64,000 nt of DNA from a virus. The notes under the pieces are model-generated. The model saw only the letters and a program-made list of their open reading frames with translations, was not told the origin of the DNA and made no database searches. This document shows positions 1-55,184 of the stretch, one piece after another. The stretch lies in the IMG/VR virus record IMGVR_UViG_3300042564_004805, positions 64,001 through 128,000 of that record; one strand, written 5' to 3'. The position numbers and the translations under genes were made by a program. The first letter of the stretch is position 1. Each line of letters begins with the position of its first letter.

Positions 1-1308
1 AATCAAACGATCATTACCCACAGGGCGGATTTGCCCCACTACTGTTTCCTTGCTCATGTTCAAACTTCGAATAGCACTGGGATATAGACTGTTGATGTCT
101 ACACCGCCAATCCATTTGTGCATGCCTTCAACTGGGTCAGCCACATATGCACCAGCAATACCATTGGGCTCAATGTCTTCACCCTGATCGTCTTTCATGA
201 TTTCAGGATTGTCTCTACGTCGAGTAGGAACACATAAGCCAAGATCATGTGCTTCGTTAGTAATGGCATTGTCAATAAGCTGTACTGACCCCATTGTTGT
301 TTGGATCAACACTCCGTTTGTGTGTGCTAGATCATTGCTTAGATCAATGAATTTCAGCTTGCGATCAATTTTCACCAACAGCATAACGTCTTGCCTGTTA
401 TAGGCAATGAACTTTTCAAAGTCTTCGTTATAGAGCTTGTCCAAGCTGCCTTCGTAAGCTATCTTCTTGTCGCCCACTTCATACTCGCCCACAAAGTCCA
501 GTCGATAACTGTGCATCTCGTGATAGGTATGCTTGCGGTACAGTTGCAGATAGTCAAGATGGACTCTGCCCACTAGATCAAAAGTAATAGTGGGCTTGCC
601 ATAGCTTTCATACTCCCTTTTCTTGGGAAATTTGTTCCAGAGACACAGCCTTTTAGTGTGCTCCTTACTCAAAATTTGAATGATACGATTGTGCAAATAG
701 GGAATATCATAACCCTCTGAATTCCAACCTGTGAGAACATCTGCATCCTCAATGAGGGTGAGAAACACATCCAATAGCTCAGTTTCATTGCTACACAGCA
801 CAGTGTCTTCAAATTTGTCCACAACTGCTGATGCTTGCTCTACTGTGAGTGTTTTGGGTTTGAGGACAAGAGTAAAGTTTTTGCCCAGCCAACTCAAATA
901 TACAGATACTGCTGTAATGGGATTGAACGCCTCGTCAGTTGACGAGAAGCCCCGATCAGGATCAAAATCAGTTTCCAAGTCAAAAAACGCCACATGCAAC
1001 TGTGGACTTGCTGTATTTTTGTAATGTTCATAAAAACAACGGAAAATGGGATTGCTATCACTTTCATATTGTTGTGTTTTTGGAACCAAGCGACACTCTC
1101 TTTGAAACTCTTCCCAACGATTGGTTTCAAATTTATCCAGCCGTTCACCATAAATGCTAGTGTATTTTCCACGCTCACTGGGAAAATACATTACGTATTT
1201 GCTGGGATATGTGTTGTAGACTCGTTTGTGGTTTACACGCTCCACAACTTGAATACAGTGTTTGTCTTTCTCCAAAATAGCATCAACATACGTCATCCAA
1301 AACTCCAT
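1..1308 (-). CDS. 43: DNA polymerase, family B (T4 gp43-like), 3' end cut by window edge
   Basis: This is the replicative DNA polymerase with a 3'-5' proofreading exonuclease domain. Seen in the translation: ExoI motif FFDLETDFD (D110, E112), ExoII motif TGWNSEGYDIPYL, ExoIII motif YNRQDV, and polymerase motif A (DINSLYPS) just before the window ends; motifs B and C lie outside. These are the standard family B signatures, and the N-terminus resembles T4-type phage polymerases. The ATG at 1308 is chosen because it gives an N-terminus (MEFWMTYVD) like other gp43 proteins. The ATG at 1296 is the alternative; it forms an ATGA overlap with the preceding small reading frame. No strong Shine-Dalgarno sequence is visible. 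Confidence 0.95.
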   Translation of the reverse strand, partial: MEFWMTYVDAILEKDKHCIQVVERVNHKRVYNTYPSKYVMYFPSERGKYTSIYGERLDKFETNRWEEFQRECRLVPKTQQYESDSNPIFRCFYEHYKNTASPQLHVAFFDLETDFDPDRGFSSTDEAFNPITAVSVYLSWLGKNFTLVLKPKTLTVEQASAVVDKFEDTVLCSNETELLDVFLTLIEDADVLTGWNSEGYDIPYLHNRIIQILSKEHTKRLCLWNKFPKKREYESYGKPTITFDLVGRVHLDYLQLYRKHTYHEMHSYRLDFVGEYEVGDKKIAYEGSLDKLYNEDFEKFIAYNRQDVMLLVKIDRKLKFIDLSNDLAHTNGVLIQTTMGSVQLIDNAITNEAHDLGLCVPTRRRDNPEIMKDDQGEDIEPNGIAGAYVADPVEGMHKWIGGVDINSLYPSAIRSLNMSKETVVGQIRPVGNDRLI

Positions 1309-2906: not shown

Positions 2907-4022
2907 TTATTTAACCGAGGGAAATTTGCCATTGCTTTGAGTTTGAGGAGGAACTCCTCCTGCTGTGACTTTGTTGAGAAATTTCCGGGCTTGTTTTTGA
3001 ACAGCATCAGGTCCCACATCGGTGGTAGTGTTCACACCTTTAACTATCTTGCCCACACCAGCTGTTTCGCCAAGACTGGGTTTGAGAATCAAGTAGCCAT
3101 CTGTTCCTGGCGAGAGAGAGTAGGGAAAACTCTCTTGCTTGGTTACCCAAGTCCAACCCAGATGTCTTGCTAATTTTGGTGCCATACTCTTATAACGCTT
3201 TTTCCTGCTCGGGGCCCAAGCCTGGAACCAAAGTCCATTTACAGGTAAGGTTTTTTGATGATCAATAGCATACTTGAGAAGTTGAAACACAGCACTGAAG
3301 ACTTTAAAGGCTGAACCTGTGCCACTTATGTCCATGCCATACTCTGTGTGCCTAAATTCCACCTCGTAAATACCCCTCTTCTGAGGCTCTTGCAATCGAG
3401 ACATTCGAAGCTCGTATTCGTTGCCATCAATTTCAAACAAAAAATCAATATAGCTGTCGCCTTCTGTTTTTATCTTCCATTTATCCCGGGGAAGTTGGTA
3501 ATCAAAAGCCTCTTGCAATTTTGGTTGAACTATTGCACTGGGCTTATATACAACAAAGTCACTTGTGTCAAAATCAAAATATACTTTGGCACCAGCTCTC
3601 TGCGCCAACATTTGACCCAATGCGCTATAGAGCTTGTTCCTGCTGCCGCGTCCACCAATAAAAGTCAAGTAGTCCCATTCATGAGATCCAAGCCAACCAA
3701 AGAGGCGTCGCACCAATTCTTTCCACAAGGGTATGGCCTTAAGGCCCATTGTGCCAGTTTGTTCTATTTCCCCATCCACTGTCCATAACCAAACATAGCC
3801 CTTGGCTTGTGGATTGGGCTCTAAATCACTGGCAGCCAATGCATCCTGTAAGTCTTTTTGATTTTTATCTTGAGTAAGTCTTTGTTCGACTAAATGGTCA
3901 TCATACTCAAAGCTTGTAATATATCTTGAAACTGAGCCCACATTGTCTTGTTGCCATTTGGTTGTCAATGGCTGATAAGCTTCTAGCAACTTCTTTAAGG
4001 GCACTAAATGGTAAATTCTCAT
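2907..4022 (-). CDS. module-sharing protein, relative of the giant neighbours
   Basis: 371 aa, no recognised enzyme motif. It begins with MRIYHLVPLKKLLEAY, which echoes the YH-[LMS]-T/V openings of the ADP-ribosyltransferase-like modules next door. Around residues 110-150 it has the motif WDYLTFIGGRGSRNKLYSAL. The 964-aa neighbour carries two copies of the same element (WDYLVFAGAGDSRQRVY and WDYINFSGDERSRNKLY). So a roughly 130-residue module has been duplicated within and between these genes. The start ATG overlaps the neighbour's TGA (GTATGAG), indicating translational coupling. Function is unknown; a virion or ejected protein is my inference from the neighbours. Confidence 0.6.
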   Translation of the reverse strand: MRIYHLVPLKKLLEAYQPLTTKWQQDNVGSVSRYITSFEYDDHLVEQRLTQDKNQKDLQDALAASDLEPNPQAKGYVWLWTVDGEIEQTGTMGLKAIPLWKELVRRLFGWLGSHEWDYLTFIGGRGSRNKLYSALGQMLAQRAGAKVYFDFDTSDFVVYKPSAIVQPKLQEAFDYQLPRDKWKIKTEGDSYIDFLFEIDGNEYELRMSRLQEPQKRGIYEVEFRHTEYGMDISGTGSAFKVFSAVFQLLKYAIDHQKTLPVNGLWFQAWAPSRKKRYKSMAPKLARHLGWTWVTKQESFPYSLSPGTDGYLILKPSLGETAGVGKIVKGVNTTTDVGPDAVQKQARKFLNKVTAGGVPPQTQSNGKFPSVK

Positions 4023-6913
4023 ACTTTTATAAGGTTTCCTTTGAGATCTGTGATAGTAATCCTATCAATACTTACAGGTGTTACCTGACAATTGGGCAGC
4101 AAATTATCTCTATCTGAAGGCTGCATGGTATCTACTGGCATATATGCTCGTGCAGTTTTATCCTCAGGTGTTATTTCCCAACTTAAGATGTATTTGCCAA
4201 ACCAATCATGCTCACCAACATCAAAAAATATAGCAATAACTGGAGTGAAAGGATATTCCACAGTGCTATATCGGCCAAATTCTCTAGCACCAGTCTCATC
4301 ATATTTTGGTTTCAGTCCGCCTGACTTTATTATACTTGTAAGCTTATTGGTCATATGGTATACTCGCTGGCCCACAATACTTTTGCCTGGATATAAATTA
4401 TATTGGGAATATTGCATGCCAGGCTCATACCAAATATTTGCTCCAGGACGCAAACCTTTGTAACTTAAACTTTCGTCCAAGTTAGTGAATGATGCAAGCT
4501 TGTCCTGCTTGACAATTGCAAAGCTTTTGTTAGTGTGCAACACTGTGCTATCAGCAGGTGCCAACTGTTTTGCCAGCCGGAGATAGAGCTTGTTGCGGCT
4601 GCGCTCATCCCCACTGAAGTTGATGTAGTCCCAGCTGTGGGTCTGGAAAAACCATTTGAGTTTTCGTATAATCAAATCAAATAATTGGGCACTTTTTTGG
4701 TCAAACATACCTGTTACAGAGATGCTGTGATCTACAGAGAAGGACACTTCATATCCAACCCAGTTTTCTGGCACTTGCTTTTGCAAGATAGTTTGAAGCT
4801 CATAAGAAGCGTCTTTTACGACTGCTATTTGCACTTCACTGCCAGCAAATTCAAATTCAGTGTAGTGGGTTGAACCGCCCTTTATTGATTGCCAATCTCC
4901 AGGAAGTGGCTTGCCTTTAAAAACTTCATCCAGCTCTTGAGATTTTGCTGCCAACAAATGGTTTTTGATCAGCAGGAACCAATCTCCAAATTGCATTGGC
5001 TCTGAATCAAGTCCTGGAGATATCTGACTCAATATTTTAGTATATACTCTTTGTCTACTGTCCCCAGCACCTGCGAAGACCAAATAGTCCCATTCTATAT
5101 TTTGTAGTAGTCCTATGATTTTTCCTACAACAATTGAAATTACATTCGCTGCACCTGTGCCTAGTAAGCCTGTTGGATCAGTTTCGCCATCTACCCTGAA
5201 TATTATTTCTCTGCCAACCAGGTTTGCTCCAGCCTCTATGTTTTTCTTCATCAACACATAGGCACCAGATTGGGCCCAATCCCGACTCACACTTATTGTG
5301 ATCTTATATCCTTGAAGATCAAACTCTGTTTCAAACATTTCTGCGTCGCCGCTTCCATATTTTTTCCAATCGCCTGGAATATGCTCACCACTTATGATTT
5401 CATCAACTCTAGTTGCTCCGCCGCAATGTTTGTTTTGAAACCAGTTGGCTTGGCGTTTGTCTAGAGTTGTAGCACCCTGGCGTGTTTTGAGTTTTTGTGT
5501 TTTGTCACATGTGACACCTCCGCCATACAGTCTGGTGATTTTGGATTTGAGAGTGCCAGGCGCACCTTTGCGCTCTGTTAACAATGTATCAACAGGCATT
5601 TTCTCCCAATGCAGCCATGCTGATGGTGCAACTTGGTTGTGCACACCAGGATCGTATTCTACAACCTTTCCTCGGTATATCTCCCTTATTTGATTCGCTG
5701 GTATAGAGCCTTTGACTCCCACTTCATGTGATCCTGTGCCTTGCACATGCACAATTTTTGATTCATCAGGTTTGGGCACTGCAATTACCCATGCTGGATT
5801 GTCCCAGTTGGCTTTTTGATTCCATGGTGCAAAACTATGAGCATAAGTTTCAGCTGACCTGGGTTCAGTTGAAAAATAGGTTAAGCCCTGTTGCCCAGCC
5901 AAGTTATACTCGCCTTTGCTTTGTATCACTCCTGTTTTTTTGATATTTTGAAATTCATGATTACTCATGCCCCTATACACTAGGTTGGGATTTGGAGTTA
6001 TGTTTAAATTGGCACGCAAATGAGATTTGGGAACAAGCTGATCTTTTACGGCGATGACTTTGCCATCATCGTCTTCAAGTGGGTCACTTTTGATGTCAAA
6101 ATAATTGGGATCATATTCGCCCAATCTACCTCTCCAGGTTACACGGTATGTGTCTCTTTTGTTTTCATTTTCTTCTGAGAGACTTTTTTGAGTCTTTAAC
6201 AGCAGTTCAAAAAACGGGCCAGATACACTAGTGTTTGCTCTCTGTGGTACAAGACGCAGGTTGAGTGCTTCAATCCATTCAGGTTTGATGTGCCTAGCAC
6301 GCAATCCACCGACAAAAAACAAATGAGTTTCAACAGGTGCATCGCCTTCAGTTTCTAGGACCGCATACATTCTGTTGCGGCCTTCGTGCCCAATTACTCT
6401 TGCGGATTTATTATAACGACCTTTTTCCCATTCTATTGGTATGTCTAAGACCAGCCAAGGACTGGCCATTCCCTGCCCTTGATCTAGTTGCTGTTTGATA
6501 TAATCCACACTCCCAGCATGTTCTCTTGACAAAGGGCTAGCCAATTTCAAAAATACACTGGGCTTCATCGCGACTCTCAAGCCAAGATAATCCACATTCT
6601 TATTGTCAGGCACTTCCCCAATGCCACTCACATTGTCGATTTTTACTTCATTTAGCAGGGCAAACAGCTCTATCAGAAGAGCTTCTTGAGCAGGCTTTTT
6701 CTCAAGTTTGCTCAATTTCTTGTAATAGTTAAGATCCTCACCCAAGTGATCCAAGGCTATTTCTCGCGCCACACTCCGCAACCGGGTGTGTTCCATCTCC
6801 ACTTTGATGCCCTGTGCCAGCTGTTTCTCCACAGAGTCTGTTGACACTTTGTATTTTTTAGCCAGCTCAGCTACGCTACTGGTAGGCTTGTTCAATAGGT
6901 CATTCAGTTTCAT
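4019..6913 (-). CDS. giant polyvalent protein with ADP-ribosyltransferase-like domains
   Basis: 964 aa from the ATG at 6913, which lies inside the upstream gene's last codons (coupled). Domain order as I read it: residues about 10-75, DUF5661-like helical domain (motif VAREIALDHLGEDLNYY); 95-225, a domain with GHEGRNRMYAV; 310-420, ADP-ribosyltransferase-like fold (VYRGMS, LTYFSTEP); 520-840, two copies of the module with the WDYL-x-F-x-G...SRxxxY motif; 850-960, a second ADP-ribosyltransferase-like domain opening with RVYHMT and GGLKP. Chains of unrelated effector domains are typical of phage polyvalent proteins. The N-terminus MKLNDLLNK resembles capsid-targeting leaders of T4 internal head proteins. 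Catalytic competence of the transferase-like domains is not established. Confidence 0.7.
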   Translation of the reverse strand: MKLNDLLNKPTSSVAELAKKYKVSTDSVEKQLAQGIKVEMEHTRLRSVAREIALDHLGEDLNYYKKLSKLEKKPAQEALLIELFALLNEVKIDNVSGIGEVPDNKNVDYLGLRVAMKPSVFLKLASPLSREHAGSVDYIKQQLDQGQGMASPWLVLDIPIEWEKGRYNKSARVIGHEGRNRMYAVLETEGDAPVETHLFFVGGLRARHIKPEWIEALNLRLVPQRANTSVSGPFFELLLKTQKSLSEENENKRDTYRVTWRGRLGEYDPNYFDIKSDPLEDDDGKVIAVKDQLVPKSHLRANLNITPNPNLVYRGMSNHEFQNIKKTGVIQSKGEYNLAGQQGLTYFSTEPRSAETYAHSFAPWNQKANWDNPAWVIAVPKPDESKIVHVQGTGSHEVGVKGSIPANQIREIYRGKVVEYDPGVHNQVAPSAWLHWEKMPVDTLLTERKGAPGTLKSKITRLYGGGVTCDKTQKLKTRQGATTLDKRQANWFQNKHCGGATRVDEIISGEHIPGDWKKYGSGDAEMFETEFDLQGYKITISVSRDWAQSGAYVLMKKNIEAGANLVGREIIFRVDGETDPTGLLGTGAANVISIVVGKIIGLLQNIEWDYLVFAGAGDSRQRVYTKILSQISPGLDSEPMQFGDWFLLIKNHLLAAKSQELDEVFKGKPLPGDWQSIKGGSTHYTEFEFAGSEVQIAVVKDASYELQTILQKQVPENWVGYEVSFSVDHSISVTGMFDQKSAQLFDLIIRKLKWFFQTHSWDYINFSGDERSRNKLYLRLAKQLAPADSTVLHTNKSFAIVKQDKLASFTNLDESLSYKGLRPGANIWYEPGMQYSQYNLYPGKSIVGQRVYHMTNKLTSIIKSGGLKPKYDETGAREFGRYSTVEYPFTPVIAIFFDVGEHDWFGKYILSWEITPEDKTARAYMPVDTMQPSDRDNLLPNCQVTPVSIDRITITDLKGNLIKV

Positions 6914-9900
6914 TAGGATCTTCTTCAAGGTTGCGGATTTTTTTCACCGTTGTAGTAGGCTTTCCCCAAGGTTCCGGCCAGCGTTGCGTAAATTTCAGCC
7001 TCACATTGGCTGCAGGAATTGGCTTGTAGATGACCCATGCATCGTAATCGTGCTGAATATCCAATGCTGGATCAGGAGTTAGATCATTGGGATCTTGAAC
7101 CTTGATTTCCCATATATCCATACTCTCGCCCTCATCTTGACTCCAATAGTAAGCCCAATCTTCAGCTTGTTCAAAAGTTTCAAACAGAAACACACCTGGT
7201 TGTCGCAATATATGATCATGTTCCTTTGTTTTGGGAACAAGTCCTCTCTGGCGTATGCTCAAACGGTTTCTTGTTCTTGTGACATGATAGAGTTTAGTGG
7301 GCAGTGGCTCATCTCCCTGCCCGAGCCACGGGGCAGCTTCTGAGACCTGGTCTTTGTTTAAATCTAGTAACATCACAGGATACCCAGTTGAACTGCGAGC
7401 TATTTCTTTGAAGTCATAAGACTTATACCATTTCTCAAGTTGTGATTGTCTTTTGGGATCATCTGAGACAGCAGTGAGAATGACAGCATGAGCCTGGTTG
7501 TCTATTGCATCCCCAATACCAGCCTCTAAAATCCAGCTACCTACTCCAGACCCTTGATGATCTTCCTCGACCCATATGTTTTTGAACACAGCTATTGTTT
7601 TGTATCTGCGTTGCAATTTTTCTGCAAGGTCGGCGGGTGCATTTTCACTTGCAAGATAATTGACCAATTGTGGGGTAGATGTATCAGTTATGTAGGCTTC
7701 GAGACCTCCATGTTCCTCTTGTTGATCAATGCTTATGCTTTCATTTGTCTTGCTCTTGCCCCAGTTTTTTGCACCCTTTTTCCTGCACTGCACTAATGCA
7801 CCGCTGGCATAGGCACTGGGCCAAACTTTGTAGCGACTCTTGACTTTGTAGTAGCAGGCATCTTGTTTTTCACTGAGCATAGAGTAGTTAACCATTTGGC
7901 CTCCGCAATGTGGACAACTGGAGTTTTCTTTCAGCTCATGCTCTGTCAAAGCCAGTTGTATGTTTTTCACATCTTCTGTGCGTATGTGCACAAGATTGCT
8001 CATGCCCATGCTTCGACTGTTCCAATAGCCTTGGTTGTGGAGATGCATCATCATATAGTAGAGATATTCTGGCATCAGCTGTTCAGTAGCTGTGACTTTG
8101 ATTCCAATATGATAGGGACTGAATTCTTTGGCTGGTGTGCCCACATTTGTTCTATCACTGCGTCGCACAAGCCAAAAGTCAGCATCAGGAAAATTAGTTT
8201 TGATAGTGCAGAGATCTCCCAATTTTGTAGAGCCAACACTTTCTTTTGTGGCTACGTTCCGGGCCTTGCCTTCACGTTCAGGATTGGGATCTTCTCTACG
8301 CTTGCGCCTAGCAGCAGTTGCACGTTTTTTCTTGCCCAGTGCCCAAGCCTTCCGCTGTGGCAGGCATTTGGGCTTGCCTTCGCCTTCACTGCCTCTAGCA
8401 CAGTCGCCTCTGATCTTGCCATCTGTCCCAAATCGCACCCATTTTTGTTTGAACCAATCACGCAAGCTTTCATCCAAATATTGCGCTTCCCAATCCATGA
8501 AGTTTTCAGCAAATTTTTGGCACCGTTCTCGTATGTTTGTATCAGCAGTAACCATAATATTGAAAGTGCGTTGACTTTGGGATTGAGTTGTATCAGAGTA
8601 GCCGCAATAGACTTTTTTGACAGGACTCTTGTTGATTAGGTCAGTACAACTTTCACCATATCTTGGCATCTGCTCGCTGCATGGACTGCATGTGGTTACA
8701 ATTATACAGCCATCAGGTATGCTTCCGTATTTTTTACGATAAGCCCTCATAGCCAATCGTTCAGCATGATACCATTTGTCATTGGCAAATGTGCTGAAAC
8801 CTATTACAAGACGGTTGCGGGGATCCAACAACCCTGCGGCTACCCATCCGTATTTGTCAGGGTTTTTCTTTCGTCTGGTGTCAACTAGGTTACACAATGC
8901 AACTAAGATGCGATCCAGCTTTTTATAGTTGTGTATTTCTACGTTATTGTTTTCATTCAAGGGCTTGCTAGTTGTCTTTCCGCCCTTTTGTCGTTTGCGT
9001 CTAGCAGCACAGTGAGCACGTTGGCTGAACCCTTGAGGATTAGAGCAGTTGATACTCTTCTTATACTTTTTGGTCCATTTTTCCTCAACAACAGAGGGAT
9101 TGCCATTCTCTATACCACTAGATTCCCACTTGCGGAAAAGAGGATGGTCAACACTTTTGGGACTGTAGACTTCCATGCTGCGATAGGCATAGTCGTTGCC
9201 ACCCAAGTATTGCACATACCCTCTCAAAGCCCAAGCGCCCATGGCAGGTGCAGCACTGTGGTGAGTATAATGTTCGCTATCCGCAGCCACAACACTGCCA
9301 TCTTTGTAGATCACAAATCTGGCACTGTGATACTTGTTGTTGCGTGCCAACCTTTTCAAATCTTGAATTGTGGGATTTTTGTGAACCATACGCTGGTCTT
9401 CATCAGTCCAAGCTTCTTCCAACTTCTTTCCCATTTGGACTAAACTGGTGCCTGTAAATGGGTTGTTTGATCCTCTGTTCTCCACATCGTAACCCAGCTT
9501 GTGATAAAAGCCTTCGCTTTCCCATTTGGCCTCTACGACGCTCTTGGTGGCCCCTTTGTTCTTTGCGATAGTCAAGGCTTGTAACATCAACGCTTTGCCA
9601 GCACCAGGTTTGTTGTCATAACTGCCCAACCATTTCACATGCGCCACTTGATTTTCAATCACCACATGTATTGCAGTTACACTGAACACGCCTAGATCTG
9701 GGGTATAGTTATAGAGGAAAATGCTATTTTTTCCCAAGTTGGGATTGTCAAGTGCTCGTAAGTTATTTTTAACCACATAAGCAACAGCCTCTAAGGCTTT
9801 GAAATCCTTGTCAAGTTTTTCATACTTTGGTCCCGCAGCATCATAGCTGGCGTCGTTAATCTCTTCTTGCTCATATGTGATTGCACCCAATAAGTCTTCT

Positions 9901-10628
9901 AGATCTGCGCGATCCAGTTGATTAGCTGATTCCTCAAGAGGTAAGTTCCAATAACCAGTTCCTTGATCTTGAAATCCCATCTTCTCATAAAATTTGTGGC
10001 TGTTCCAGATGGGTTTCACAACAGCGAGTAAGGCACCTTGTTTCTGGCTTTGTGCTAACCCCTGCTCCAAAAGTTGCCTACCAGTGCCATTCAAACTACC
10101 TAACCAAGTGATTTTTGCTGTCTTGTTGTCGAGCAGTATGTGCAATGCACTTTGGCAACCTTCAGTGTAGAGCCAAATGCTGTTGTTACCTAGTTGTGGA
10201 TCGTTTTCAAAAAGCTTCTGTGATTCCAAAACGTGACTGATGGCACGCAAGGCTCGATAGGCTTTGCTTTGCGTTCCCAGTTGACTGCTTGCCGTCGTTA
10301 GCTGGCGAGAAATTTGTTCGTTGTAGGTTTGCATCAGTGTCCCACAAGAAGTGAGAACAGCTATAGTTGGTGATGTATGGGGTGTTGTAGAGCGAGAATC
10401 AAACACTATATCCTTGGCTGGATCTTTGTAGATAGAGGTTGTTATATATCCTGATTGCAGGATATTAGGCGCATTGTCTAGTATAGTGCTATGATAGAGT
10501 TCACTGGGATTATTTTTTGACTCTTCCGGCTTGTCATTCTTTGGGTCAGTGTCTTCCCACTGGCTGAACACACTGGGTTTTTGATTCTGTTGGTCCTCCT
10601 TGTTTTCCAAAATATCAACCAGCTTCAT
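6900..10628 (-). CDS. giant polyvalent protein: ART-like, three GNATs, deaminase, DNA-recognition-like, ART-like
   Basis: 1242 aa. In order: residues 1-12, MKLVDILENKED leader with I-L-E, the type of site cut by T4 gp21 protease; 43-115, ADP-ribosyltransferase-like start (LYHSTILDNAP); about 120-230 and 275-385, two acetyltransferase (GNAT) domains each ending in FYxKxG[FY]; about 525-545, Cys/Arg-rich CSNPQGFSQRAHC motif; 565-690, cytidine-deaminase-like zinc enzyme with HAE (621-623), CSPC (647-650) and C661; 725-795, basic WVRFGTDGKIRGDC...DPNPEREGKA segment; 800-895, a domain reminiscent of type I restriction specificity subunits (LGDLCTIK, PEYLYYMM); 905-955, zinc-ribbon CPHC with a KVWPSAYASGAL motif; 1005-1090, third GNAT (HQGSGVGSW); 1110-1230, ADP-ribosyltransferase-like (LYHVT, GVFLFE). 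Each motif is visible; the ejected-effector role is inferred. Confidence 0.75.
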   Translation of the reverse strand: MKLVDILENKEDQQNQKPSVFSQWEDTDPKNDKPEESKNNPSELYHSTILDNAPNILQSGYITTSIYKDPAKDIVFDSRSTTPHTSPTIAVLTSCGTLMQTYNEQISRQLTTASSQLGTQSKAYRALRAISHVLESQKLFENDPQLGNNSIWLYTEGCQSALHILLDNKTAKITWLGSLNGTGRQLLEQGLAQSQKQGALLAVVKPIWNSHKFYEKMGFQDQGTGYWNLPLEESANQLDRADLEDLLGAITYEQEEINDASYDAAGPKYEKLDKDFKALEAVAYVVKNNLRALDNPNLGKNSIFLYNYTPDLGVFSVTAIHVVIENQVAHVKWLGSYDNKPGAGKALMLQALTIAKNKGATKSVVEAKWESEGFYHKLGYDVENRGSNNPFTGTSLVQMGKKLEEAWTDEDQRMVHKNPTIQDLKRLARNNKYHSARFVIYKDGSVVAADSEHYTHHSAAPAMGAWALRGYVQYLGGNDYAYRSMEVYSPKSVDHPLFRKWESSGIENGNPSVVEEKWTKKYKKSINCSNPQGFSQRAHCAARRKRQKGGKTTSKPLNENNNVEIHNYKKLDRILVALCNLVDTRRKKNPDKYGWVAAGLLDPRNRLVIGFSTFANDKWYHAERLAMRAYRKKYGSIPDGCIIVTTCSPCSEQMPRYGESCTDLINKSPVKKVYCGYSDTTQSQSQRTFNIMVTADTNIRERCQKFAENFMDWEAQYLDESLRDWFKQKWVRFGTDGKIRGDCARGSEGEGKPKCLPQRKAWALGKKKRATAARRKRREDPNPEREGKARNVATKESVGSTKLGDLCTIKTNFPDADFWLVRRSDRTNVGTPAKEFSPYHIGIKVTATEQLMPEYLYYMMMHLHNQGYWNSRSMGMSNLVHIRTEDVKNIQLALTEHELKENSSCPHCGGQMVNYSMLSEKQDACYYKVKSRYKVWPSAYASGALVQCRKKGAKNWGKSKTNESISIDQQEEHGGLEAYITDTSTPQLVNYLASENAPADLAEKLQRRYKTIAVFKNIWVEEDHQGSGVGSWILEAGIGDAIDNQAHAVILTAVSDDPKRQSQLEKWYKSYDFKEIARSSTGYPVMLLDLNKDQVSEAAPWLGQGDEPLPTKLYHVTRTRNRLSIRQRGLVPKTKEHDHILRQPGVFLFETFEQAEDWAYYWSQDEGESMDIWEIKVQDPNDLTPDPALDIQHDYDAWVIYKPIPAANVRLKFTQRWPEPWGKPTTTVKKIRNLEEDPNETE

Positions 10629-11253
10629 TTACAGGCTCCACATGTGTCATATAGCTGTCATCTGTATAAAAGTCCACAGCGTTCTCCACACTGTAGACTG
10701 TCATGTCTATTTGATACCCAGGATTACTGGTTATAGGATTTTTCACCCAAGCATTGTCATGCCAAATGATTCTATTGTTGGGATAAAGATAATAGTTTCC
10801 TTCATCCATTTTGAACAAATGCGCGCATTTGTGTTCAGGCGTTTCACTGAAATTGGTGTCAGTAAAAGCAGAGTTTTCCCAACCCCAGTCTAAAGTCATA
10901 CAGTATTGTCCTTGACGACGTTCCCCAGTGTAAACCAACAACGTAGCCCTTAACCCCGCCATGCGTTGCCGGACCTGCACATCAATATAATGACTGAAAC
11001 AGTCCCAATAAACATGTTCTGCAAGTGGTCTTACTGGTGCATCATTACGCCAACAAAAAGCAGTTATGGGTCGACGTGTCCAGTTCACTCCATTTTCCAA
11101 AAATGCTTCAAATAAAGGCGTGCGTTTCTCCATACTTGCGACACTGTGTACATCACAGGGAGTGAACTCGCCGTGGCCTTTGGTGTGATTGTAAAGGTAT
11201 TGGTTACGTATTAGGCATGTTAAAACGGGGATATTATGATTCAAATATGGCAT
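10615..11253 (-). CDS. conserved phage protein of unknown function
   Basis: 212 aa from the ATG at 11253; longer versions would run into the divergent sirtuin gene. The protein is rich in aromatic residues and Trp/His/Cys (for example NWTRRPITAFCWRND, GWENSAFTDTNF, NNRIIWHDNAW) and has no membrane segment or catalytic motif I can name. It sits at the head of the minus-strand block that leads into the giant polyvalent protein, and its 3' end overlaps that gene's start. No Shine-Dalgarno precedes the ATG; an AATAAATA box lies only 4 nt upstream. Confidence 0.6.
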   Translation of the reverse strand: MPYLNHNIPVLTCLIRNQYLYNHTKGHGEFTPCDVHSVASMEKRTPLFEAFLENGVNWTRRPITAFCWRNDAPVRPLAEHVYWDCFSHYIDVQVRQRMAGLRATLLVYTGERRQGQYCMTLDWGWENSAFTDTNFSETPEHKCAHLFKMDEGNYYLYPNNRIIWHDNAWVKNPITSNPGYQIDMTVYSVENAVDFYTDDSYMTHVEPVNEAG

Positions 11254-11257
11254 AGTA

Positions 11258-11265
11258 TATTTATT
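11258..11265 (-). promoter_or_regulatory. candidate late promoter box AATAAATA abutting a start codon
   Basis: The minus strand reads AATAAATATACTATG, close to the T4 late consensus TATAAATACTATT. The box ends 4 nt before the ATG at 11253, so initiation the usual short distance downstream would give a leaderless or nearly leaderless mRNA. This is consistent with the absence of a Shine-Dalgarno sequence there. Confidence 0.4.
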
Positions 11266-11349
11266 GTCTGGACAGTGAGCACAATACAAAGGCAGTAAAC
11301 ATGAGAATTGGATTGCAACCCTCCAGAAATTTGTTGCATAATCAAAATT

Positions 11350-12081
11350 ATGACCCAATTATTGATTTTTAGCGGCGCTGGTTTGAGTGCTGAAAGCGGC
11401 ATCCCCACATTTAGAGAAGATAGCGAAGGTTTATGGAGCCGTTATGATCCATTGGTTTACAGTAATTACGCCACTTGGCGACAAAACTTTCAAATTGTAA
11501 ATGAATTTCACAGCGACTTACGGGAAATGCTTCTGAAGTTTCAGCCAAACGCCGCCCACAAACAGGTGGCAGAATGGCAGAGAAAATACAGTGCAACAGT
11601 GATAACTCAAAATGCAGACCTCTTGCTAGAGGAGGCTGGTTGCATCCCTGTTGTGCATGTTCACGGACAGCTGGATGAAATGCAATGCGAAAACTGTGGC
11701 CATGTTTGGAATATTGGCTACACTCGATACAACATCTCCCTAGGTTGTCCCAATTGCCAAAGCCTGACTGATGTCAAGCCTGCGGTAGTGTTGTTTGGTG
11801 AACCAGCACCCAAATACCAATATCTCTACAACACACTGGACAGCCTTACAGACAAAAGCCTGTTCCTGTGTATTGGAACATCAGGCTCAGTTGTTCCTGT
11901 TGATAACTTCGCAAAAGTGTTGGATTGTCCTAGTGTAATCAACGTGTTAAATTTAAATCGGGACATTGACGGCTACTTGCCTCCGATAGTTCCTTCTCAC
12001 TGGACTCACTGCCTATTAGGGCCTGTAACTCAACAACTGCACAAAATAGACAAGATCTTACAAGAGCATTTTGGTTTCTAA
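11350..12081 (+). CDS. SIR2-family NAD-dependent deacylase (sirtuin)
   Basis: 243 aa from the ATG at 11350, which places the Rossmann signature FSGAGLSAESGIPTFR at the extreme N-terminus as in bacterial CobB. Further motifs are TQNADLL (the Q-N-x-D loop), the catalytic-His region VVHVHG, and a four-Cys zinc ribbon (CENC...CPNC). Nicotinamide-releasing deacylation of lysine, or removal of other acyl groups, is the family reaction. All core residues appear intact, so an active cytoplasmic enzyme is expected. It is divergent from the 10.6-kb gene and leads a short plus-strand run. No clear Shine-Dalgarno is visible. The defence-type SIR2 NADases usually lack this tight zinc ribbon, which favours a true deacylase. 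Confidence 0.9.
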   Translation: MTQLLIFSGAGLSAESGIPTFREDSEGLWSRYDPLVYSNYATWRQNFQIVNEFHSDLREMLLKFQPNAAHKQVAEWQRKYSATVITQNADLLLEEAGCIPVVHVHGQLDEMQCENCGHVWNIGYTRYNISLGCPNCQSLTDVKPAVVLFGEPAPKYQYLYNTLDSLTDKSLFLCIGTSGSVVPVDNFAKVLDCPSVINVLNLNRDIDGYLPPIVPSHWTHCLLGPVTQQLHKIDKILQEHFGF

Positions 12082-16048: not shown

Positions 16049-16309
16049 TTAGCCCCACACAAGTGAGAATTTTACTGCATCATCTTCTGTGAGGAACCAA
16101 AACACATCACCAGTCCAGGTGTAGTTGTCTTGTCCCAAAACATTTTGGCACCATGCGTGAATCTCACTCCATTTATTACTCTGTGAATTTTGAACCAGAA
16201 CATACGGATAACCAGCAGCCAATAGATTATTGCTAGAGACTCTTTGGTTCGGAGGCAGTTTCCGCCACTTGCTGATGTCTGTCCCAATTGGTGCAAACCA
16301 GTCCCTCAC
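16049..16309 (-). CDS. small protein ending in FSLVW (FxLxW family), GTG start
   Basis: 86 aa. The GTG at 16309 overlaps the TGA of the upstream YjfC-like gene (CTGTGAGG), suggesting coupled translation; no ATG is available in a sensible place. It contains DISKWRKLPPNQRV, KWSEIHAWCQN and then a C-terminal block identical to the downstream paralogue (DVFWFLTEDDAVKFSLVWG). Four such genes lie in a row, which indicates tandem amplification. No known domain. Confidence 0.6.
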   Translation of the reverse strand: MRDWFAPIGTDISKWRKLPPNQRVSSNNLLAAGYPYVLVQNSQSNKWSEIHAWCQNVLGQDNYTWTGDVFWFLTEDDAVKFSLVWG

Positions 16310-17457
16310 AGAAACCAATGTGGCACCACGCGGCTGGTGTCCTGCACAATCTCTCGGGCACTGTCTCGAATGATGAGCCCAGCTGGCTTGTCTCCCACCA
16401 CCCAACTGCCAATCACAGCATGATGGCCATCTTGCTGGAACAGTCGCGCCCGCTGTTGGTAGATCCGGTGCCCGTGATACTTGCCCGCAGTGCTCGCTAC
16501 CTCGCGTCCATTGCTCACAATACTGATGTTGGCACCCTCACGGCTGAGCATGGGCTTAGCCACGTAGTCGCTGCCACCAGCTTCTGTTGAGGTCCAGTAG
16601 GCAGGCAGAATGTTGGGGTGATCCGGGAACATCTCGTGGAGCACAGGCAGAATGCCTTTGTTGCTCAGTATGCACTTCCAGATGGGTTCAATGATGCCGC
16701 TGACATCATTCCTTGTGTGCTGGCCAAACTCATCCGAGAACATCCACTCCCACGGATACAGCTTGAACCAATACTTGATGGGGCGATCTTCCAGGTCCAC
16801 AAACTGATTGTTGAGCCAGCCAATGTCGCCTAGGTTGATGAAGCGTGCATCAAGGCCAGCCTGTGTGGCCAGGTCCTGAAGATACACACAAGTCTGCCGC
16901 TCTTCCTCATTGTCCCCAAAGCCAGCAAAGTAAAAGGGCTCACCCGGTGGCATGAGCACGCGAATCTCAGTAAATCGCTCCACGAGGCGCTCATGTAGGC
17001 TGTTGAACTGATCTGCGCCACGGCGCTCGTCCTGTAGCCAAAACCACTGCATCATAGCCGACTCAATCACCATAGTGGGCGTGTCAGCGTTGTATTCCAG
17101 CATCTTGGGCGGACCCTTGCCGTCATAGGCGAAGTCAAATCGCCCATAGAGTGATGGGTCGTTCCGTGCCCAACTCCACTGGATGTAGTCGTGATAGTCA
17201 GCTGGGATGCCCATGCGCGTCATCAGCTCACGGTCATTGAACACTCGGTCCACAGCATCGAGGCAGCGAGCATGCACCTCTTCGGTAGCAGCTTCCAGCT
17301 CATCAATCTCGGCACTGGTGAACTCGTAGGCCACAGTCTCGTCCCAGTAGGTGCCATCTCCACCAGTGCTGGGGTTGCCACTTGTGTGAAACGTGAAGCC
17401 CACTTCCTCGGCACGCTCGCGCCAGTTGGGACGGGCCTGCATTGTGTGACGTCGCAT
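16306..17457 (-). CDS. glutathionylspermidine synthase-like ATP-grasp ligase (YgiC/YjfC family)
   Basis: 383 aa from the ATG at 17457, which has a strong AAGGAG ten bases upstream. Family features are YWDETVAYEF near residues 35-45, GRFDFAYDGKGPPKMLEYNADTPT, EPIWKCILSNKGILPVL, and the ATP-grasp C-terminal part YVAKPMLSREGANISIV followed by IGSWVVGDKPAGLIIRDS. These match E. coli YgiC/YjfC, ATP-grasp enzymes related to the synthetase half of GspSA but without the amidase. The true substrate of YgiC/YjfC is not known. It sits downstream of DUF1190 and DUF350 genes, exactly as in bacterial operons. Confidence 0.9.
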   Translation of the reverse strand: MRRHTMQARPNWRERAEEVGFTFHTSGNPSTGGDGTYWDETVAYEFTSAEIDELEAATEEVHARCLDAVDRVFNDRELMTRMGIPADYHDYIQWSWARNDPSLYGRFDFAYDGKGPPKMLEYNADTPTMVIESAMMQWFWLQDERRGADQFNSLHERLVERFTEIRVLMPPGEPFYFAGFGDNEEERQTCVYLQDLATQAGLDARFINLGDIGWLNNQFVDLEDRPIKYWFKLYPWEWMFSDEFGQHTRNDVSGIIEPIWKCILSNKGILPVLHEMFPDHPNILPAYWTSTEAGGSDYVAKPMLSREGANISIVSNGREVASTAGKYHGHRIYQQRARLFQQDGHHAVIGSWVVGDKPAGLIIRDSAREIVQDTSRVVPHWFL

Positions 17458-17479
17458 ATGATGTCTCCTTCTGAGCCTT

Positions 17480-17507
17480 ACTGTAGCAGAATTTTTGGGT
17501 TTGTCAA
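17480..17507 (-). promoter_or_regulatory. sigma-70 type promoter TTGACA-16-TACAGT before the YjfC-like gene
   Basis: On the minus strand, TTGACA (17502-17507) and TACAGT (17480-17485) are 16 bp apart, followed by AAGGAG and the ATG at 17457. The -35 overlaps the stop codon of the upstream DUF1190 gene, so each gene of the cassette can be read separately. Confidence 0.65.
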
Positions 17508-18220
17508 CCGCCGCCCGAGCTGCCCATACCAGCACCACTACCACCAAATCCACCGCGGCTAGCACTGCTGGTGCTCACAGCACTTGAGCCACTAGAGGGG
17601 ACACTCGCGCGGCTTACAGAGGTGGGCATAGTCCGGGCCACTGTGCCTGCACTGCTTGCAGCCGGAGCACCTGGAGAGGCGGGCTTTACATTCCATCCAG
17701 CGCGGGCTGCGCCCTGGTTCATGCCACTGCCCAAGCGCCCGCTGTCATAACTCGAGCCGCCTCCGTAGTAGTTTCCTACCATAACTGGTGTAGTGGCCCC
17801 ACCGCCGCCGTGGTAACCACCAGCCATCACTCGACGATCTTCGCGCTCTCGGGCATTTGTAGGGCTGTTGTAGCCTTGAAAGTAAACCGGCCGAGTATCT
17901 GCTGTCATGCGTCCTGCCATGAAGCCAACCATGGCTGGTAGCCAAATGTTGCCCGAATTTCCCGGTCCAGTTACCGACGTGCAACGCTCGTGTCCACGAG
18001 CAATACAGCTTTGCTCGTCATTGTATTTCGGCGCTGTAGACACATGATCGCTCATGGCCTTGTACCAGCGATCATCACAATTTGTGCCTCCCATGCTCTT
18101 GCATTGGTCAGCACTCTCGTAGATGGGATCACCATCCTTGGGCTTGTCATCACAAGCTGTGAGGCTGATGGCGCTTACTGAGCCCAACAGCACTAGAGCA
18201 ATTTTTTGACTGTGTCGCAT
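17504..18220 (-). CDS. DUF1190 lipoprotein (YgiB/YjfM family)
   Basis: 238 aa with a type II signal peptide: MRHSQKIALVLLGSVSAISLTAC, lipobox L-T-A-C with Cys23. The mature part has the family's paired Cys motifs (ADQCKSMGGTNCDDRW and EQSCIARGHERCTSV), then WLPAMVGFMAGR and PVYFQGY, then a low-complexity Gly/Ser tail ending in GGG. These are the hallmarks of DUF1190 (YgiB/YjfM) proteins, anchored in the outer or inner membrane. It lies between the DUF350 and ATP-grasp genes, with its own promoter and AGGAG ribosome-binding site. A lipoprotein gene in a lytic-phage background is unusual. Confidence 0.88.
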   Translation of the reverse strand: MRHSQKIALVLLGSVSAISLTACDDKPKDGDPIYESADQCKSMGGTNCDDRWYKAMSDHVSTAPKYNDEQSCIARGHERCTSVTGPGNSGNIWLPAMVGFMAGRMTADTRPVYFQGYNSPTNAREREDRRVMAGGYHGGGGATTPVMVGNYYGGGSSYDSGRLGSGMNQGAARAGWNVKPASPGAPAASSAGTVARTMPTSVSRASVPSSGSSAVSTSSASRGGFGGSGAGMGSSGGG

Positions 18221-35963: not shown

Positions 35964-37313
35964 CTAGTTATAGCACTGGAGAATTGCAGCCGTCATGGAA
36001 CCGGCCGAAGTTTGACACCACGCGGTGCTGCTGCTTATTTCTCTCACCGGACTTGAGCGATTGGTAACAGTGTTATCTCCTAACACACCGCAATCGTTAA
36101 ATCCCCAAGTCCAAAGTGTGCCATCTGTCTTTATTGCAGTGTTGTGATTACTACCAGCTGAAGTTTGACACCAAGTGGTGGAATTGGTGATTTCTCTCCC
36201 TGGACTTGATAGTAGACCTGTGTTGTTGATTCCTAACTGCCCACACTGGTTAAATCCCCAACTCCAAAGTGTGCCATCTGTTTTTATTGCACTAGTCCAG
36301 GCGCTTGCCGAAGTTTGACACCAAGTGGTGCTGCTGCTTATTTCTCTCACCGGACTTGAGCGATTGGTAACAGTGTTATCTCCCAACTGCCCACACCTAT
36401 TACACCCCCAACTCCAAAGTGTGCCATCTGTCTTTACTGCACTGATGGTAATACCTTTACCAGCTGATGTTTGACGCCAAGTGGTGGAACTGGTGATTTC
36501 CCTTACAGGACTTGAGCGATTGGTAACAGTGGTGTCTCCTAACATACCGCAATAGTTATTTCCCCAACTCCAAAGTGTACCATCTGTTTTTAATGCACTG
36601 GTGTGAAAACTACCACTTGATGTTTGACACCAAGTGGTTGAACTGGTGATTTCTCTCACTGGACTTGAGCGACTTGTAACAGTGTTATCTCCCAATCTGC
36701 CACACCCGTTATATCCCCAAGTCCAAAGTGTACCATCTGTTTTTAATGCACTGTTGTGAGAATTACCAGCTGAAGTTTGACACCAAGTAGTTGAACTGGT
36801 GATTTCCCTTACAGGACTTGAGCGACTTGTAACAGTGTTGACTCCCAACTGACCCTGGACATTGTATCCCCAAGTCCACAGTGTGCTATCTGTTTTTATT
36901 GCACTAGTGAAGGCGCTGCCTGCCGAAGTTTGACACCAAGTGACAGAACTGGTGATTTCTCTCACTGGACTTGAGCGACTTGTAACAGTGTTGTCTCCTA
37001 ACGGACCGCATATATTACGACCCCAAGTCCACATCTGTCTAAGAGGCCAATCTCGACGTAAAACCCTACCATCCAATCCCACCCATGAAGTACAAGTGGA
37101 TATTACAGGTACACAAATACTTTTGACAAAAACTGTTTGACCAAAACCTATGCACTTTGTAGCTAGGTCAGGTAAGTCTGATACTGTGTTAACAACAAAA
37201 CTAATGCCAACTCCAGCAGCACTGGTTTGGGCTGCTAACAAAGGAAAACAAACACTGTCGCAAGCAGTTATTAATGAGTCAATACTAGTTTGGATTTCAG
37301 AGGGTGTTGGCAT
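35964..37313 (-). CDS. RCC1-repeat seven-bladed propeller adhesin, copy 1
   Basis: 449 aa. An N-terminal region of about 100 residues (NTVSDLPDLATKCIGFGQTVFV) is followed by seven repeats of about 50 residues of the form SSPVREITSSTTWCQTSAG...ALKTDGTLWTWGxNxxGQLGDN. This is the RCC1 blade (L-W-x-W-G-x-N-x-x-G-Q-L-G). Seven blades make one closed propeller. There is no signal peptide. The tail-fibre-like head and phage context suggest a receptor-binding or fibre-tip protein. GGAG precedes the ATG. Repeats are nearly identical at DNA level to those of copies 2 and 4. Confidence 0.85.
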   Translation of the reverse strand: MPTPSEIQTSIDSLITACDSVCFPLLAAQTSAAGVGISFVVNTVSDLPDLATKCIGFGQTVFVKSICVPVISTCTSWVGLDGRVLRRDWPLRQMWTWGRNICGPLGDNTVTSRSSPVREITSSVTWCQTSAGSAFTSAIKTDSTLWTWGYNVQGQLGVNTVTSRSSPVREITSSTTWCQTSAGNSHNSALKTDGTLWTWGYNGCGRLGDNTVTSRSSPVREITSSTTWCQTSSGSFHTSALKTDGTLWSWGNNYCGMLGDTTVTNRSSPVREITSSTTWRQTSAGKGITISAVKTDGTLWSWGCNRCGQLGDNTVTNRSSPVREISSSTTWCQTSASAWTSAIKTDGTLWSWGFNQCGQLGINNTGLLSSPGREITNSTTWCQTSAGSNHNTAIKTDGTLWTWGFNDCGVLGDNTVTNRSSPVREISSSTAWCQTSAGSMTAAILQCYN

Positions 37314-37326
37314 GTTCTGTCTCCAT

Positions 37327-40028: not shown

Positions 40029-40029
40029 G

Positions 40030-55162: not shown

Positions 55163-55184
55163 ATGTGCTGTCCTGGTGAAAGAT

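What the first reader, a model, noticed from the sequence alone, without database searches (positions are those of the whole stretch)
4019..10628. Two giant multi-domain proteins that look like ejected host-takeover effectors
The 964-aa and 1242-aa proteins string together at least four ADP-ribosyltransferase-like modules (VYRGMS/YFST; RVYHMT; LYHSTILDNAP; LYHVT/GVFLFE), three acetyltransferase domains, a deaminase and DNA-recognition-like and zinc-ribbon segments. The N-termini are MKLVDILENKE and MKLNDLLNK. Known background: T4 packages Alt, an ADP-ribosyltransferase, and internal proteins in the head by an N-terminal leader cut by gp21 after L/I-x-E. The hypothesis is that these proteins are packaged and delivered with the DNA, giving the phage a set of NAD- and acetyl-CoA-using effectors at time zero.
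Basis: partly seen in the sequence, partly recalled or inferred. Interest (0 to 1): 0.85.

Follow-up and report, generated by a model that had tools for sequence, protein, structure and literature searches.

The report
Effector polyproteins cut by capsid protease
A very large virus of bacteria encodes long chains of different enzymes that look as if they ride inside its head, and the joints between the links carry the cutting signal of the virus's own head-maturation protease, so one packaged chain could become many separate weapons; this is a prediction from sequence and still needs a test on real virus particles.

Summary
Both proteins are real (P1 1242 aa, P2 964 aa) and overlap end to end with a third, P3. 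Confirmed: three acetyltransferases and a deaminase in P1, and an ART-like module in P2, 45.6% identical to a phage "large polyvalent protein". Of four claimed ARTs, one is well supported, one weak, one untestable, one a fragment.

The packaging idea gains support and extends. A 328-kb contig of the same phage encodes a T4 gp21-family protease. In relatives the modules are split and reshuffled; new gene starts carry MKLxDLL-type leaders, most ending in xE. Internal junctions keep [LIV]xE: 150 of 179 module starts have it within 14 residues, against 24 of 268 interior windows. A 134-residue GNAT cassette is present or absent between nearly identical phages, with breakpoints at E residues.

Best reading: polyvalent effector polyproteins, head-targeted and cut by the phage's own prohead protease. 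In S-CREM2 all 5 leader-matching proteins were in virions (pattern drawn post hoc); S-SZBM1 did not replicate this (1 of 5). Packaging, cleavage and targets are unproven here.

The parts
6900..10628 (-). P1, 1242-aa multi-module protein, start ATG, MKLVDILENKE; overlaps the start of P2 by 14 bases
10605..10628 (-). P1 leader MKLVDILE| ending in an LxE site (P1 residues 1-8)
10404..10502 (-). LYHST fragment (P1 43-75), probably an incomplete ART; missing from relative L018
9942..10265 (-). GNAT-1 (about P1 122-229); followed by ..LPLEE|SANQ
   Evidence: (PF13508, three stretches; FR47 187-227)
9429..9806 (-). GNAT-2 (about P1 275-400)
   Evidence: PF13673 342-402
9096..9398 (-). Module M9 (P1 411-511), unknown function; starts after KKLEE|AW; the L023 version starts MKLLDLFE|ARF
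8964..9080 (-). Module M1 KWTKKYKKSINCSNPQGFSQRAHC.. (P1 517-555), preceded by VVEE|; split relatives NLEE| and DLEE| behind their own leader
8493..8936 (-). Deaminase-like domain (P1 about 565-712), preceded by PLNE|; HAE and two Cys after a P visible in sequence
   Evidence: (PF00383 586-676)
8253..8468 (-). Module M2 LRDWFKQKWVRFGTDGKIRG.. (P1 721-792), preceded by YLDE|; at least 567 relatives in IMG/VR
7944..8231 (-).
7758..7916 (-). CPHCGG ribbon-like stretch and module M3 DACYYKVKSRYKVWPSAYASGALVQC (P1 905-957), with ELKE| before the ribbon and MLSE| before M3
7338..7739 (-). GNAT-3 cassette of 134 residues (P1 about 964-1097), present or absent between nearly identical contigs, breakpoints at KTNE| (T-N-E) and QVSE| (V-S-E)
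6984..7298 (-). C-terminal LYHVT module (P1 about 1111-1215), weakly KptA/ART-like
4019..6913 (-). P2, 964-aa multi-module protein, MKLNDLLNK; overlaps the start of P3 by 4 bases
6695..6868 (-). DUF5661 (P2 16-73)
   Evidence: PF18905 E 2.5e-11
6218..6646 (-). Module M6 VKIDN..HEGRNRMYAV (P2 90-232), ParB-like by eye only; internal junction ALLNE| aligns with split-gene leader MKLWDFLQE|
5597..5986 (-). ART-1 module VYRGMS (P2 310-439); its conserved N-terminal part follows SLSE|
5423..5566 (-). Module M5 GAPGTLKSKIT..WFQNKHC (P2 450-497), preceded by LLTE|
4955..5401 (-). GNAT-like repeat 1 (P2 505-653), preceded by RVDE|
4499..4891 (-). GNAT-like repeat 2 (P2 675-805), preceded by ELDE|; one fold row only, plus homology to P3
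4022..4369 (-). C-terminal RVYHMT module (P2 849-964), fold untestable here
2907..4022 (-). P3, 371 aa if the ATG at 4022 is the start (my gene caller preferred a GTG six codons later): leader-like MRIYHLVPLKKLLE|AY, two repeats homologous to P2's GNAT-like repeats, third junction LGE|TAGVG

Best explanation
P1, P2 and P3 are head-packaged polyproteins of early effectors in a T4-type jumbo phage. An N-terminal leader of the T4 capsid-targeting kind (clear on P1, probable on P3, uncertain on P2) draws each chain into the prohead core. The phage's gp21-family protease, active during head maturation, cuts after [L/I/V]-x-E, removing the leader and severing the chain at the linkers between modules. 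The freed modules (ART-like, GNATs, a deaminase-like enzyme and small Cys-containing basic modules) stay with the DNA and are ejected with it. Because cassettes are bounded by the same short site, modules can be gained, lost, fused, or split off behind a new leader without losing delivery. Shown here: module identities as graded, leader and junction motifs, the protease and capsid protein in the same genome, and cassette swapping. Inferred: packaging of these proteins, cleavage at the internal sites, ejection, and all host targets.
For: gp21-family protease and gp23 capsid protein with a candidate LxE site in the 328-kb contig of the same phage. Junctions: [LIV]xE within 14 aa upstream of 150 of 179 distinct module starts versus 24 of 268 interior windows; [LIV]xD 15, [LIV]xK 14, [LIV]xQ 20 and Ex[LIV] 75 among the same 179. 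The signal is local: 11 of 132 at -42..-28, 30 of 147 at -28..-14, 127 of 155 at -14..0, 6 of 180 at 0..14, 24 of 180 at 14..28. Without the module used for retrieval (M2) and M13: 92 of 106. The same modules directly follow start-codon leaders: one search lists 32 leaders (25 start MK or MR; at least two, MRVHE| and MLAE|, are not convincing) and 137 internal junctions (at least 4 of them leaders behind an upstream ATG), e.g. MRAEEFMNE|NLRKWF, MRLTDFITE|KCWKGY, MRAGEFITE|AWSEKY. P2's internal IELFALLNE|VKIDN aligns with split genes MKLWDFLQE|VKIDN and MRLIDLFEA|VKIDN. The leader regex fits 28 of 69 M2-bearing ORFs at their first ATG, against 109 of 1149 other ORFs of the same loci, some of them spurious. 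A GNAT cassette of 134 aa is present or absent between contigs about 99% identical, breakpoints KTN/E and QVS/E. The ART-1 cassette sits in P2 here but in the P1-like ORF of L018, where it follows NQISE|. In S-CREM2, 5 of 219 CDS match the regex; all 5 are among the 52 virion proteins, 0 of 167 undetected. T4 gp21 cuts after L/I-X-E and the first 10 residues of IPIII suffice for targeting (PMC9026906 sections 9 and 10).
Against: No virion or cleavage data for this phage. S-SZBM1: 5 of 218 CDS match the frozen regex, 1 of the 30 proteins in its Table 1 and 4 of 188 others (Fisher P 0.53). The S-CREM2 regex was written after its virion N-termini had been seen, and one of its five hits, gp17 MKQIIIHE, may be chance. 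P2's leader has no conserved LxE; some split genes (MKLSNLFD.., MKISQLLNK..) have a leader-like start without it. M13 (DUF5661) 0 of 12, GNAT-2 0 of 2, GNAT-1 1 of 2, M8 1 of 2 and M5 3 of 5 upstream windows carry the motif. The left break of the GNAT cassette is T-N-E, not [LIV]xE. S-RIM2's relative has no leader, and VQME rather than [LIV]xE before its DACYH module. S-CREM2's gp137 was detected in virions without a leader. The homology-boundary test gave 2.5-fold for [LI]xE but also 2.1-fold for Ex[LIV]. LxE also occurs inside domains. Windows within a module family share ancestry, so P values overstate independence. Genes lie far from the capsid cluster.
Confidence: 0.62

Rival explanations
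1. Packaged but not cut apart: the chains are ordinary polyvalent proteins that enter the head by the leader and are ejected whole; the internal [LIV]xE motifs are relics of fusing leader-bearing genes, or N-caps of the modules.
For: Several junctions keep leader-like residues (P2 ELFALLNE; L023 TLMELFDL). An E also precedes M2 in the small phage C75C1 (MGELKKW). Ex[LIV] is enriched at homology boundaries too and is present in 75 of 179 upstream windows.
Against: Unrelated modules share the motif at a set spacing: with M allowed in the first place and M13, GNAT-1 and GNAT-2 left out, the E sits 0-2 residues before the anchor in 138 of 164 cases. Internal junctions mostly lose the M[KR]xx[DE][FIL] part and become acidic before the hxE, as expected if only the cut site is kept. 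The GNAT cassette breaks at the E residues.
Confidence: 0.2
2. Early or middle non-virion host-takeover proteins, made after infection; MK-rich N-termini are coincidental.
For: Genes are not next to the capsid cluster; a DNA polymerase-like gene (by eye) and Sir2 lie nearby; no virion data.
Against: Leader-plus-module genes recur in about two dozen distinct forms; the related S-RIM2 module protein lies two genes from the terminase small subunit, in the neck gene cluster; leader-bearing enzymes are virion proteins in S-CREM2.
Confidence: 0.13
3. Structural or DNA-condensing head proteins in which the small basic Cys modules are the working part and the enzyme domains are decayed.
For: M2 and M3 are short, basic and strongly conserved; the P1 YHST stretch is a fragment.
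Against: GNATs and the deaminase pass Pfam cut-offs; the deaminase keeps HAE and Cys residues by eye; a GNAT cassette is gained or lost as a unit.
Confidence: 0.05

Closest known systems
Polyvalent proteins (Iyer et al. 2017, PMC5512222)
   Same: Several unrelated enzyme domains (ART-like, GNAT) in one phage protein; P2 residues 254-440 are 45.6% identical to an annotated large polyvalent protein.
   Different: In the parts read, that paper proposes embedded metallopeptidases or C-terminal assemblin-like peptidases; here no peptidase family matched P1-P3, and the predicted cutter is the phage's separate head protease acting at [LIV]xE linkers.
T4 internal proteins IPI-IPIII and Alt with capsid-targeting leaders cut by gp21 (PMC9026906, PMC3012670)
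   Same: MK-type leader ending in an L/I-x-E site on the IPs, gp21-family protease, cargo in the head; T4 Alt is an ART.
   Different: T4 cargo is one protein per gene, cut at its termini (T4 scaffold proteins are cut into several pieces, but these mostly leave the head); here up to about ten modules are strung together with a site between most of them.
Giant-phage head proteins with processed propeptides (SPN3US, PMC5694885; phiKZ)
   Same: Large phages carrying many head proteins matured by a prohead protease.
   Different: Propeptides are mostly long; only gp45 has one of T4-leader length. Multi-effector chains were not mentioned in the passages read.
Cyanophage virion enzymes (S-CREM2, PMC10665884; S-SZBM1, PMC9146016)
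   Same: Virion-detected cytidylyltransferases (both phages), a kinase and a SAM hydrolase (S-CREM2) start with MK..F..FL.E-type or similar leaders.
   Different: Separate genes, not chains; the parts of those papers that I read do not name the leader.

Membership tests
Polyvalent proteins (PMC5512222) | Two or more biochemically unrelated domains in one polypeptide of a mobile element | tested here: met
   GNATs and deaminase in P1 over Pfam cut-offs; ART-like and GNAT-like folds in P2 (low-confidence model)
Polyvalent proteins (PMC5512222) | Homology to known polyvalent-protein domains | tested here: met
   P2 254-440 to Pag-Yong1 large polyvalent protein, 45.6% identity, E 2e-44
Polyvalent proteins (PMC5512222) | H-Y-D active site of polyvalent ARTs (a usual trait) | tested here: inconclusive
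   P1 C-term keeps H (YHV) and a D (YD.WVIYKP) in four sequences; P2 ART-1 looks R-S/T-E-like
Polyvalent proteins (PMC5512222) | Gene near late virion genes (described as typical, not required) | tested here: not met
   P1 at 66.8 kb, capsid cluster at 237-241 kb of the 328-kb contig
Polyvalent proteins (PMC5512222) | Delivered into the host with the DNA | not testable with these tools
   needs virion proteomics
T4-type head cargo with capsid-targeting leader (PMC9026906): P1 and P3 | Short N-terminal propeptide (7 residues in Alt, 10-19 in the IPs) ending in L/I-x-E | tested here: met
   P1: MKLVDILE|; P3: MRIYHLVPLKKLLE|, if the ATG start is right
T4-type head cargo with capsid-targeting leader (PMC9026906): P2 | Short N-terminal propeptide ending in L/I-x-E | tested here: not met
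   MKLNDLLNKPTSSVAE: only V-A-E at 16, not kept in L022 and L023. PMC9026906 says an Asp at position 10 stops processing but not targeting, so packaging is not excluded
T4-type head cargo with capsid-targeting leader (PMC9026906) | gp21-family prohead protease in the same phage | tested here: met
   PF03420 E 3.2e-23 in the 328-kb contig; contig matches the window's record at 100%
T4-type head cargo with capsid-targeting leader (PMC9026906) | Found in purified virions and cleaved | not testable with these tools
   no proteome of this phage
T4 Alt/VIP2-type ADP-ribosyltransferase | ART fold with R-S-E residues and homology to Alt | tested here: inconclusive
   R, T and E invariant in ART-1; fold matches at Z 6-8 on a pLDDT-48.6 model; no Pfam ART family matched; not compared with Alt itself
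GNAT acetyltransferases (PF13508) | Match over Pfam's gathering score | tested here: met
   P1 51.9 bits against 27, three stretches
Cytidine deaminase-like (PF00383) | Match over Pfam's gathering score | tested here: met
   P1 586-676, 38.7 bits against 25

The most novel reading that the evidence does not exclude
T4-type phages in general run a plug-in delivery system: effector cassettes bounded by [L/I/V/M]-x-E are strung into polyproteins, pulled into the prohead by one leader, and turned into a set of separate effectors by the head-maturation protease acting in trans. Cassettes (ARTs, GNATs, deaminases, a sigma-70 region 4 domain in L024, small Cys modules) move between phages, and between fused and stand-alone genes, along these sites.
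Probability: 0.5. Interest if true: 0.86.

Novelty: new variant of a known kind. Interest (0 to 1): 0.74.

Why it matters
If true, the protease that matures the capsid is also the switch that turns one packaged chain into many early effectors, a viral polyprotein strategy inside a DNA phage head. It would explain how large phages load a varied arsenal with a single targeting signal, give a simple sequence rule (leader plus [LIV]xE linkers) for finding packaged effectors among the many unknown phage genes, and identify small conserved environmental-phage modules as head cargo. The rule can be checked with existing phage proteomes by searching for semi-tryptic peptides.

Tried and rejected
Structure prediction gave poor models: P1 C-terminal module pLDDT 48 with no useful fold match; P2 pLDDT 48.6, used only for its ART-like and GNAT-like stretches. 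No Foldseek match reached E 0.001.

The DNA-recognition-like claim had no Pfam support. ParB-like is by eye only: no Pfam match. The RVYHMT module had no relatives beyond identical copies in the one scan made; its one PDB sequence match, E 1.9, is noise.

A genome-collection scan for ART-1 found none. Profile searches against PDB sequences with A2 and A4 found nothing useful.

The homology-boundary test was judged too confounded, since most proteins had been retrieved by one module and Ex[LIV] rose as well; it was replaced by the per-module test.

The leader regex as a general predictor of virion proteins was not upheld: S-SZBM1 failed. There I counted only the 30 proteins of Table 1; a passage of the text names further proteins as detected, which I did not count. 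Among 30 T4 CDS tested it hits ipII, ipIII and vs.6, annotated GrcA, and misses ipI. A looser regex without the MK/MR start gave no significant result in S-CREM2 as a whole (7 of 52 against 12 of 167, P 0.13). Two regex counts in this phage (9 of 55 MK/MR starts against 1.06 expected; LxE in 6 of 9 against 50 of 319) were post hoc, and the later regex hits 9 of 328 proteins, some plainly by chance.

Print searches for a prior description; none of the titles, abstract starts and passages seen described protease-punctuated effector chains. Papers were not read whole: abstract, sections 6, 9, 11, 32 and passages of PMC5512222; sections 9, 10 and passages of PMC9026906; section 18 and passages of PMC10665884; section 27 and passages of PMC9146016; passages only of PMC7824862, PMC9503650, PMC3037559, PMC9964418, PMC9602691, PMC3012670, PMC5694885.
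Full report
Where it is. The window is bases 64001-128000 of a 141,401-base virus record. That record is 100% identical to bases 60-141460 (reversed) of a 328,603-base IMG/VR contig, so the larger contig was used for the rest of the phage. The host is not known. P1 (6900-10628), P2 (4019-6913) and P3 (2907-4022) lie head to tail on the minus strand with overlapping ends (14 and 4 bases), as in a translationally coupled operon. P3's start is uncertain: my gene caller chose a GTG six codons after the ATG.

What the proteins contain. P1: three GNAT stretches and a PF00383 deaminase, over Pfam cut-offs, plus small modules in a stretch (678-990) matched by phrog_727, E 2e-40. P2: DUF5661; a module with HEGRNRMYAV; a YRGMS module 45.6% identical to a large polyvalent protein of Planktothrix phage Pag-Yong1, with invariant R, T and E at the places expected of an R-S-E ART; a Cys module; two repeats shared with P3; and an orphan RVYHMT end. 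The P2 model is poor overall (pLDDT 48.6). Still, residues from about 310 to 447 align with CC0527 (Z 8.4, rmsd 3.1, 106 aligned), Tpt1 (Z 7.3, 3.5, 91), the Rhs toxin TreX (Z 6.3) and PltA (Z 6.1). Residues 505-655 align almost only with GNATs such as YhhK (Z 7.8, 3.6, 102), Elp3 and TacT; the second repeat, 675-805, gives one row, also an acetyltransferase (Z 6.1). Z values below 8 can be background, so these are supportive, not decisive. The P1 C-terminal module resembles KptA weakly (E 0.5 in PDB sequences; 0.012 in Pfam).

The head protease. The contig encodes a PF03420 protease (E 3.2e-23), a scaffold-like protein rich in [LIV]xE (6.2 per 100 aa against 1.4 for all predicted proteins) and a gp23 capsid protein (E 7.1e-96) whose N-terminal part holds GILFE|NATPG. 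T4 gp21 cuts after L/I-X-E, and ten N-terminal residues of IPIII are enough for targeting (PMC9026906, sections 9 and 10). IPII and IPIII read MKTYQEFIAE|A and IPI has a longer start with a STITE|A string.

Split genes carry leaders. In relatives the modules are divided differently, and the new gene heads look like leaders: MKLQELLDFNAANLEE|KWTKKY, MKLWDFLQE|VKIDN, MMLWEILDCHIADLEE|KWTKKY, MKLLDLFE|ARF, MRLIDLFEA|VKIDN, MRIKDLKPTAQTLQE|LFKP; two, MKLSNLFD.. and MKISQLLNK.., lack the E. The split leader MKLWDFLQE|VKIDN aligns with the internal IELFALLNE|VKIDN of P2. From these and the earlier loci 74 distinct contexts were listed. Several are tiny genes of leader plus module: MRAEEFMNE|NLRKWF, MKVAEIVNE|DLRKWF, MRIEEIVTE|DLRKWF, MRSDEFISE|NLKQWF. 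The later regex fits 28 of 69 M2-bearing ORFs with a closed 5' end, against 109 of 1149 other ORFs of those loci.

Junctions. For 18 reference modules in 15 families, [LIV]xE lies within 14 residues upstream of 150 of 179 distinct starts, against 24 of 268 windows inside modules; the same 179 give 15 for [LIV]xD, 14 for [LIV]xK, 20 for [LIV]xQ and 75 for Ex[LIV] (interior windows 19, 59, 46 and 14 of 268). By module: M1 17 of 17, M2 58 of 61, M3 28 of 33, M12 25 of 28, M10 6 of 6, M5 3 of 5, M6 3 of 3, M7 3 of 3, M8 1 of 2, M9 2 of 2, M11 2 of 2, deaminase 1 of 1, GNAT-1 1 of 2, GNAT-2 0 of 2, DUF5661 0 of 12. The signal falls off on both sides: 11 of 132, 30 of 147, 127 of 155, 6 of 180, 24 of 180 in five windows from -42 to +28. 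Leaving out M2 and M13: 92 of 106. Members of one module family are related, so the formal P value is not meaningful; the point is that unrelated modules share the motif. One search lists 32 leaders, 25 of them starting MK or MR and a few (MRVHE|, MLAE|, MSSIF..) not convincing, and 137 internal junctions, at least 4 of which are leaders behind an upstream ATG. Internal junctions keep hxE but mostly not the front of the leader, and are acidic before it. Outside the counted set, S-RIM2's protein has VEE before its M2-like module but VQME before DACYH, and no leader.

Cassette movement. A contig matching the window at 98.7-99.6% (L014) lacks exactly 134 residues of P1, the third GNAT, between KTN/E and QVS/E; L018 lacks the same 134. 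The left site is T-N-E, the right one V-S-E. The ART-1 cassette sits in P2 here but in the P1-like gene of L018, where it follows NQISE|.

Tests against virion proteomes. S-CREM2 (Table 3 of PMC10665884): the regex matches 5 of 219 CDS, all among the 52 detected, 0 of 167 undetected (Fisher 6.5e-4): SAM hydrolase MKDFDSFLEE, kinase MKRFDAFLTEE, cytidylyltransferase MKNFSSFLTE, gp13 MKDLHSFLTE and gp17 MKQIIIHE, the last perhaps by chance. I wrote this regex after seeing virion N-termini, so it is not an independent test; most detected proteins of unknown function do not match it. Frozen and applied to S-SZBM1 (Table 1 of PMC9146016), it matched 5 of 218 CDS: 1 of 30 detected (cytidylyltransferase MRFRQFIIE) and 4 of 188 others, P 0.53. 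The rule is therefore not a proven predictor. A 39-kb phage, C75C1, carries a KWVRFG-like module with no leader (MGELKKWRDQNW), one example that the leader is not part of the module.

How it most likely works. Leader-guided entry into the prohead, gp21-type cutting at leader and linkers, ejection of the separated modules with the DNA. Targets are unknown. ART-like and GNAT modules would most simply modify host proteins, as Alt does in T4, and the deaminase would act on nucleotides or nucleic acid; these are inferences.

Relation to the known. Polyvalent proteins and their injection were proposed in PMC5512222 (abstract, sections 6, 9, 11, 32 and passages seen), including an analogy to viral polyproteins, but with embedded peptidases. 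ARTs in phage heads are reviewed in PMC9503650 (passages). PMC9026906 suggests that capsid-targeting leaders let T4-like phages carry various proteins. What I did not find is the combination: effector chains with the head protease's cut site between modules.

Noticed in passing
L024:7713-11357 (IMG/VR contig 3300017917_001562): A 1215-aa chain with leader-like MFLNDLYN, a sigma-70 region 4 domain (PF04545, E 1.2e-17) and repeated GVAEG/GVAEA strings between its parts: possibly a packaged transcription factor in a second punctuated polyprotein.
   Followed up: partly
G001:C1 177280-178107 (-), 118517-119116 (+), 197393-197794 (+): Other leader-like genes of the same phage: MRITDLNPRILRE.. with LYRAQ/SWTSD/EFIL (ART-like by eye), MKINEITQRIVWHSS.. 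and MRASDFLSPKIQLTE.. (ParB-like by eye); no Pfam match at E 0.05.
   Followed up: partly
window 11308-12081 (+): Sir2-family gene (PF02146, E 2.8e-37) close to the operon, another NAD-using protein.
   Followed up: no
window 16306-17565 (-): Glutathionylspermidine synthase (PF03738, E 6.7e-140), to my knowledge unusual in a phage.
   Followed up: no
window 10615-11358 (-): Protein matching phrog_3704, labelled ferredoxin (E 2e-46), just upstream of P1.
   Followed up: no
window 52856-55225 (-): ClpA/ClpB-like AAA protein (PF07724, E 1.5e-50).
   Followed up: no
window 36000-41106 (-): Neighbouring genes of about 450 aa whose DNA matches one another at 75-82% in the contig comparison: a tandem gene family of unknown role.
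   Followed up: no
S-CREM2 OR473000 gp12 (7704-10313): Virion-detected Cas9-like nuclease whose residues 17-25 read LRFASFMAE|A, a leader-like string not at the annotated start.
   Followed up: no
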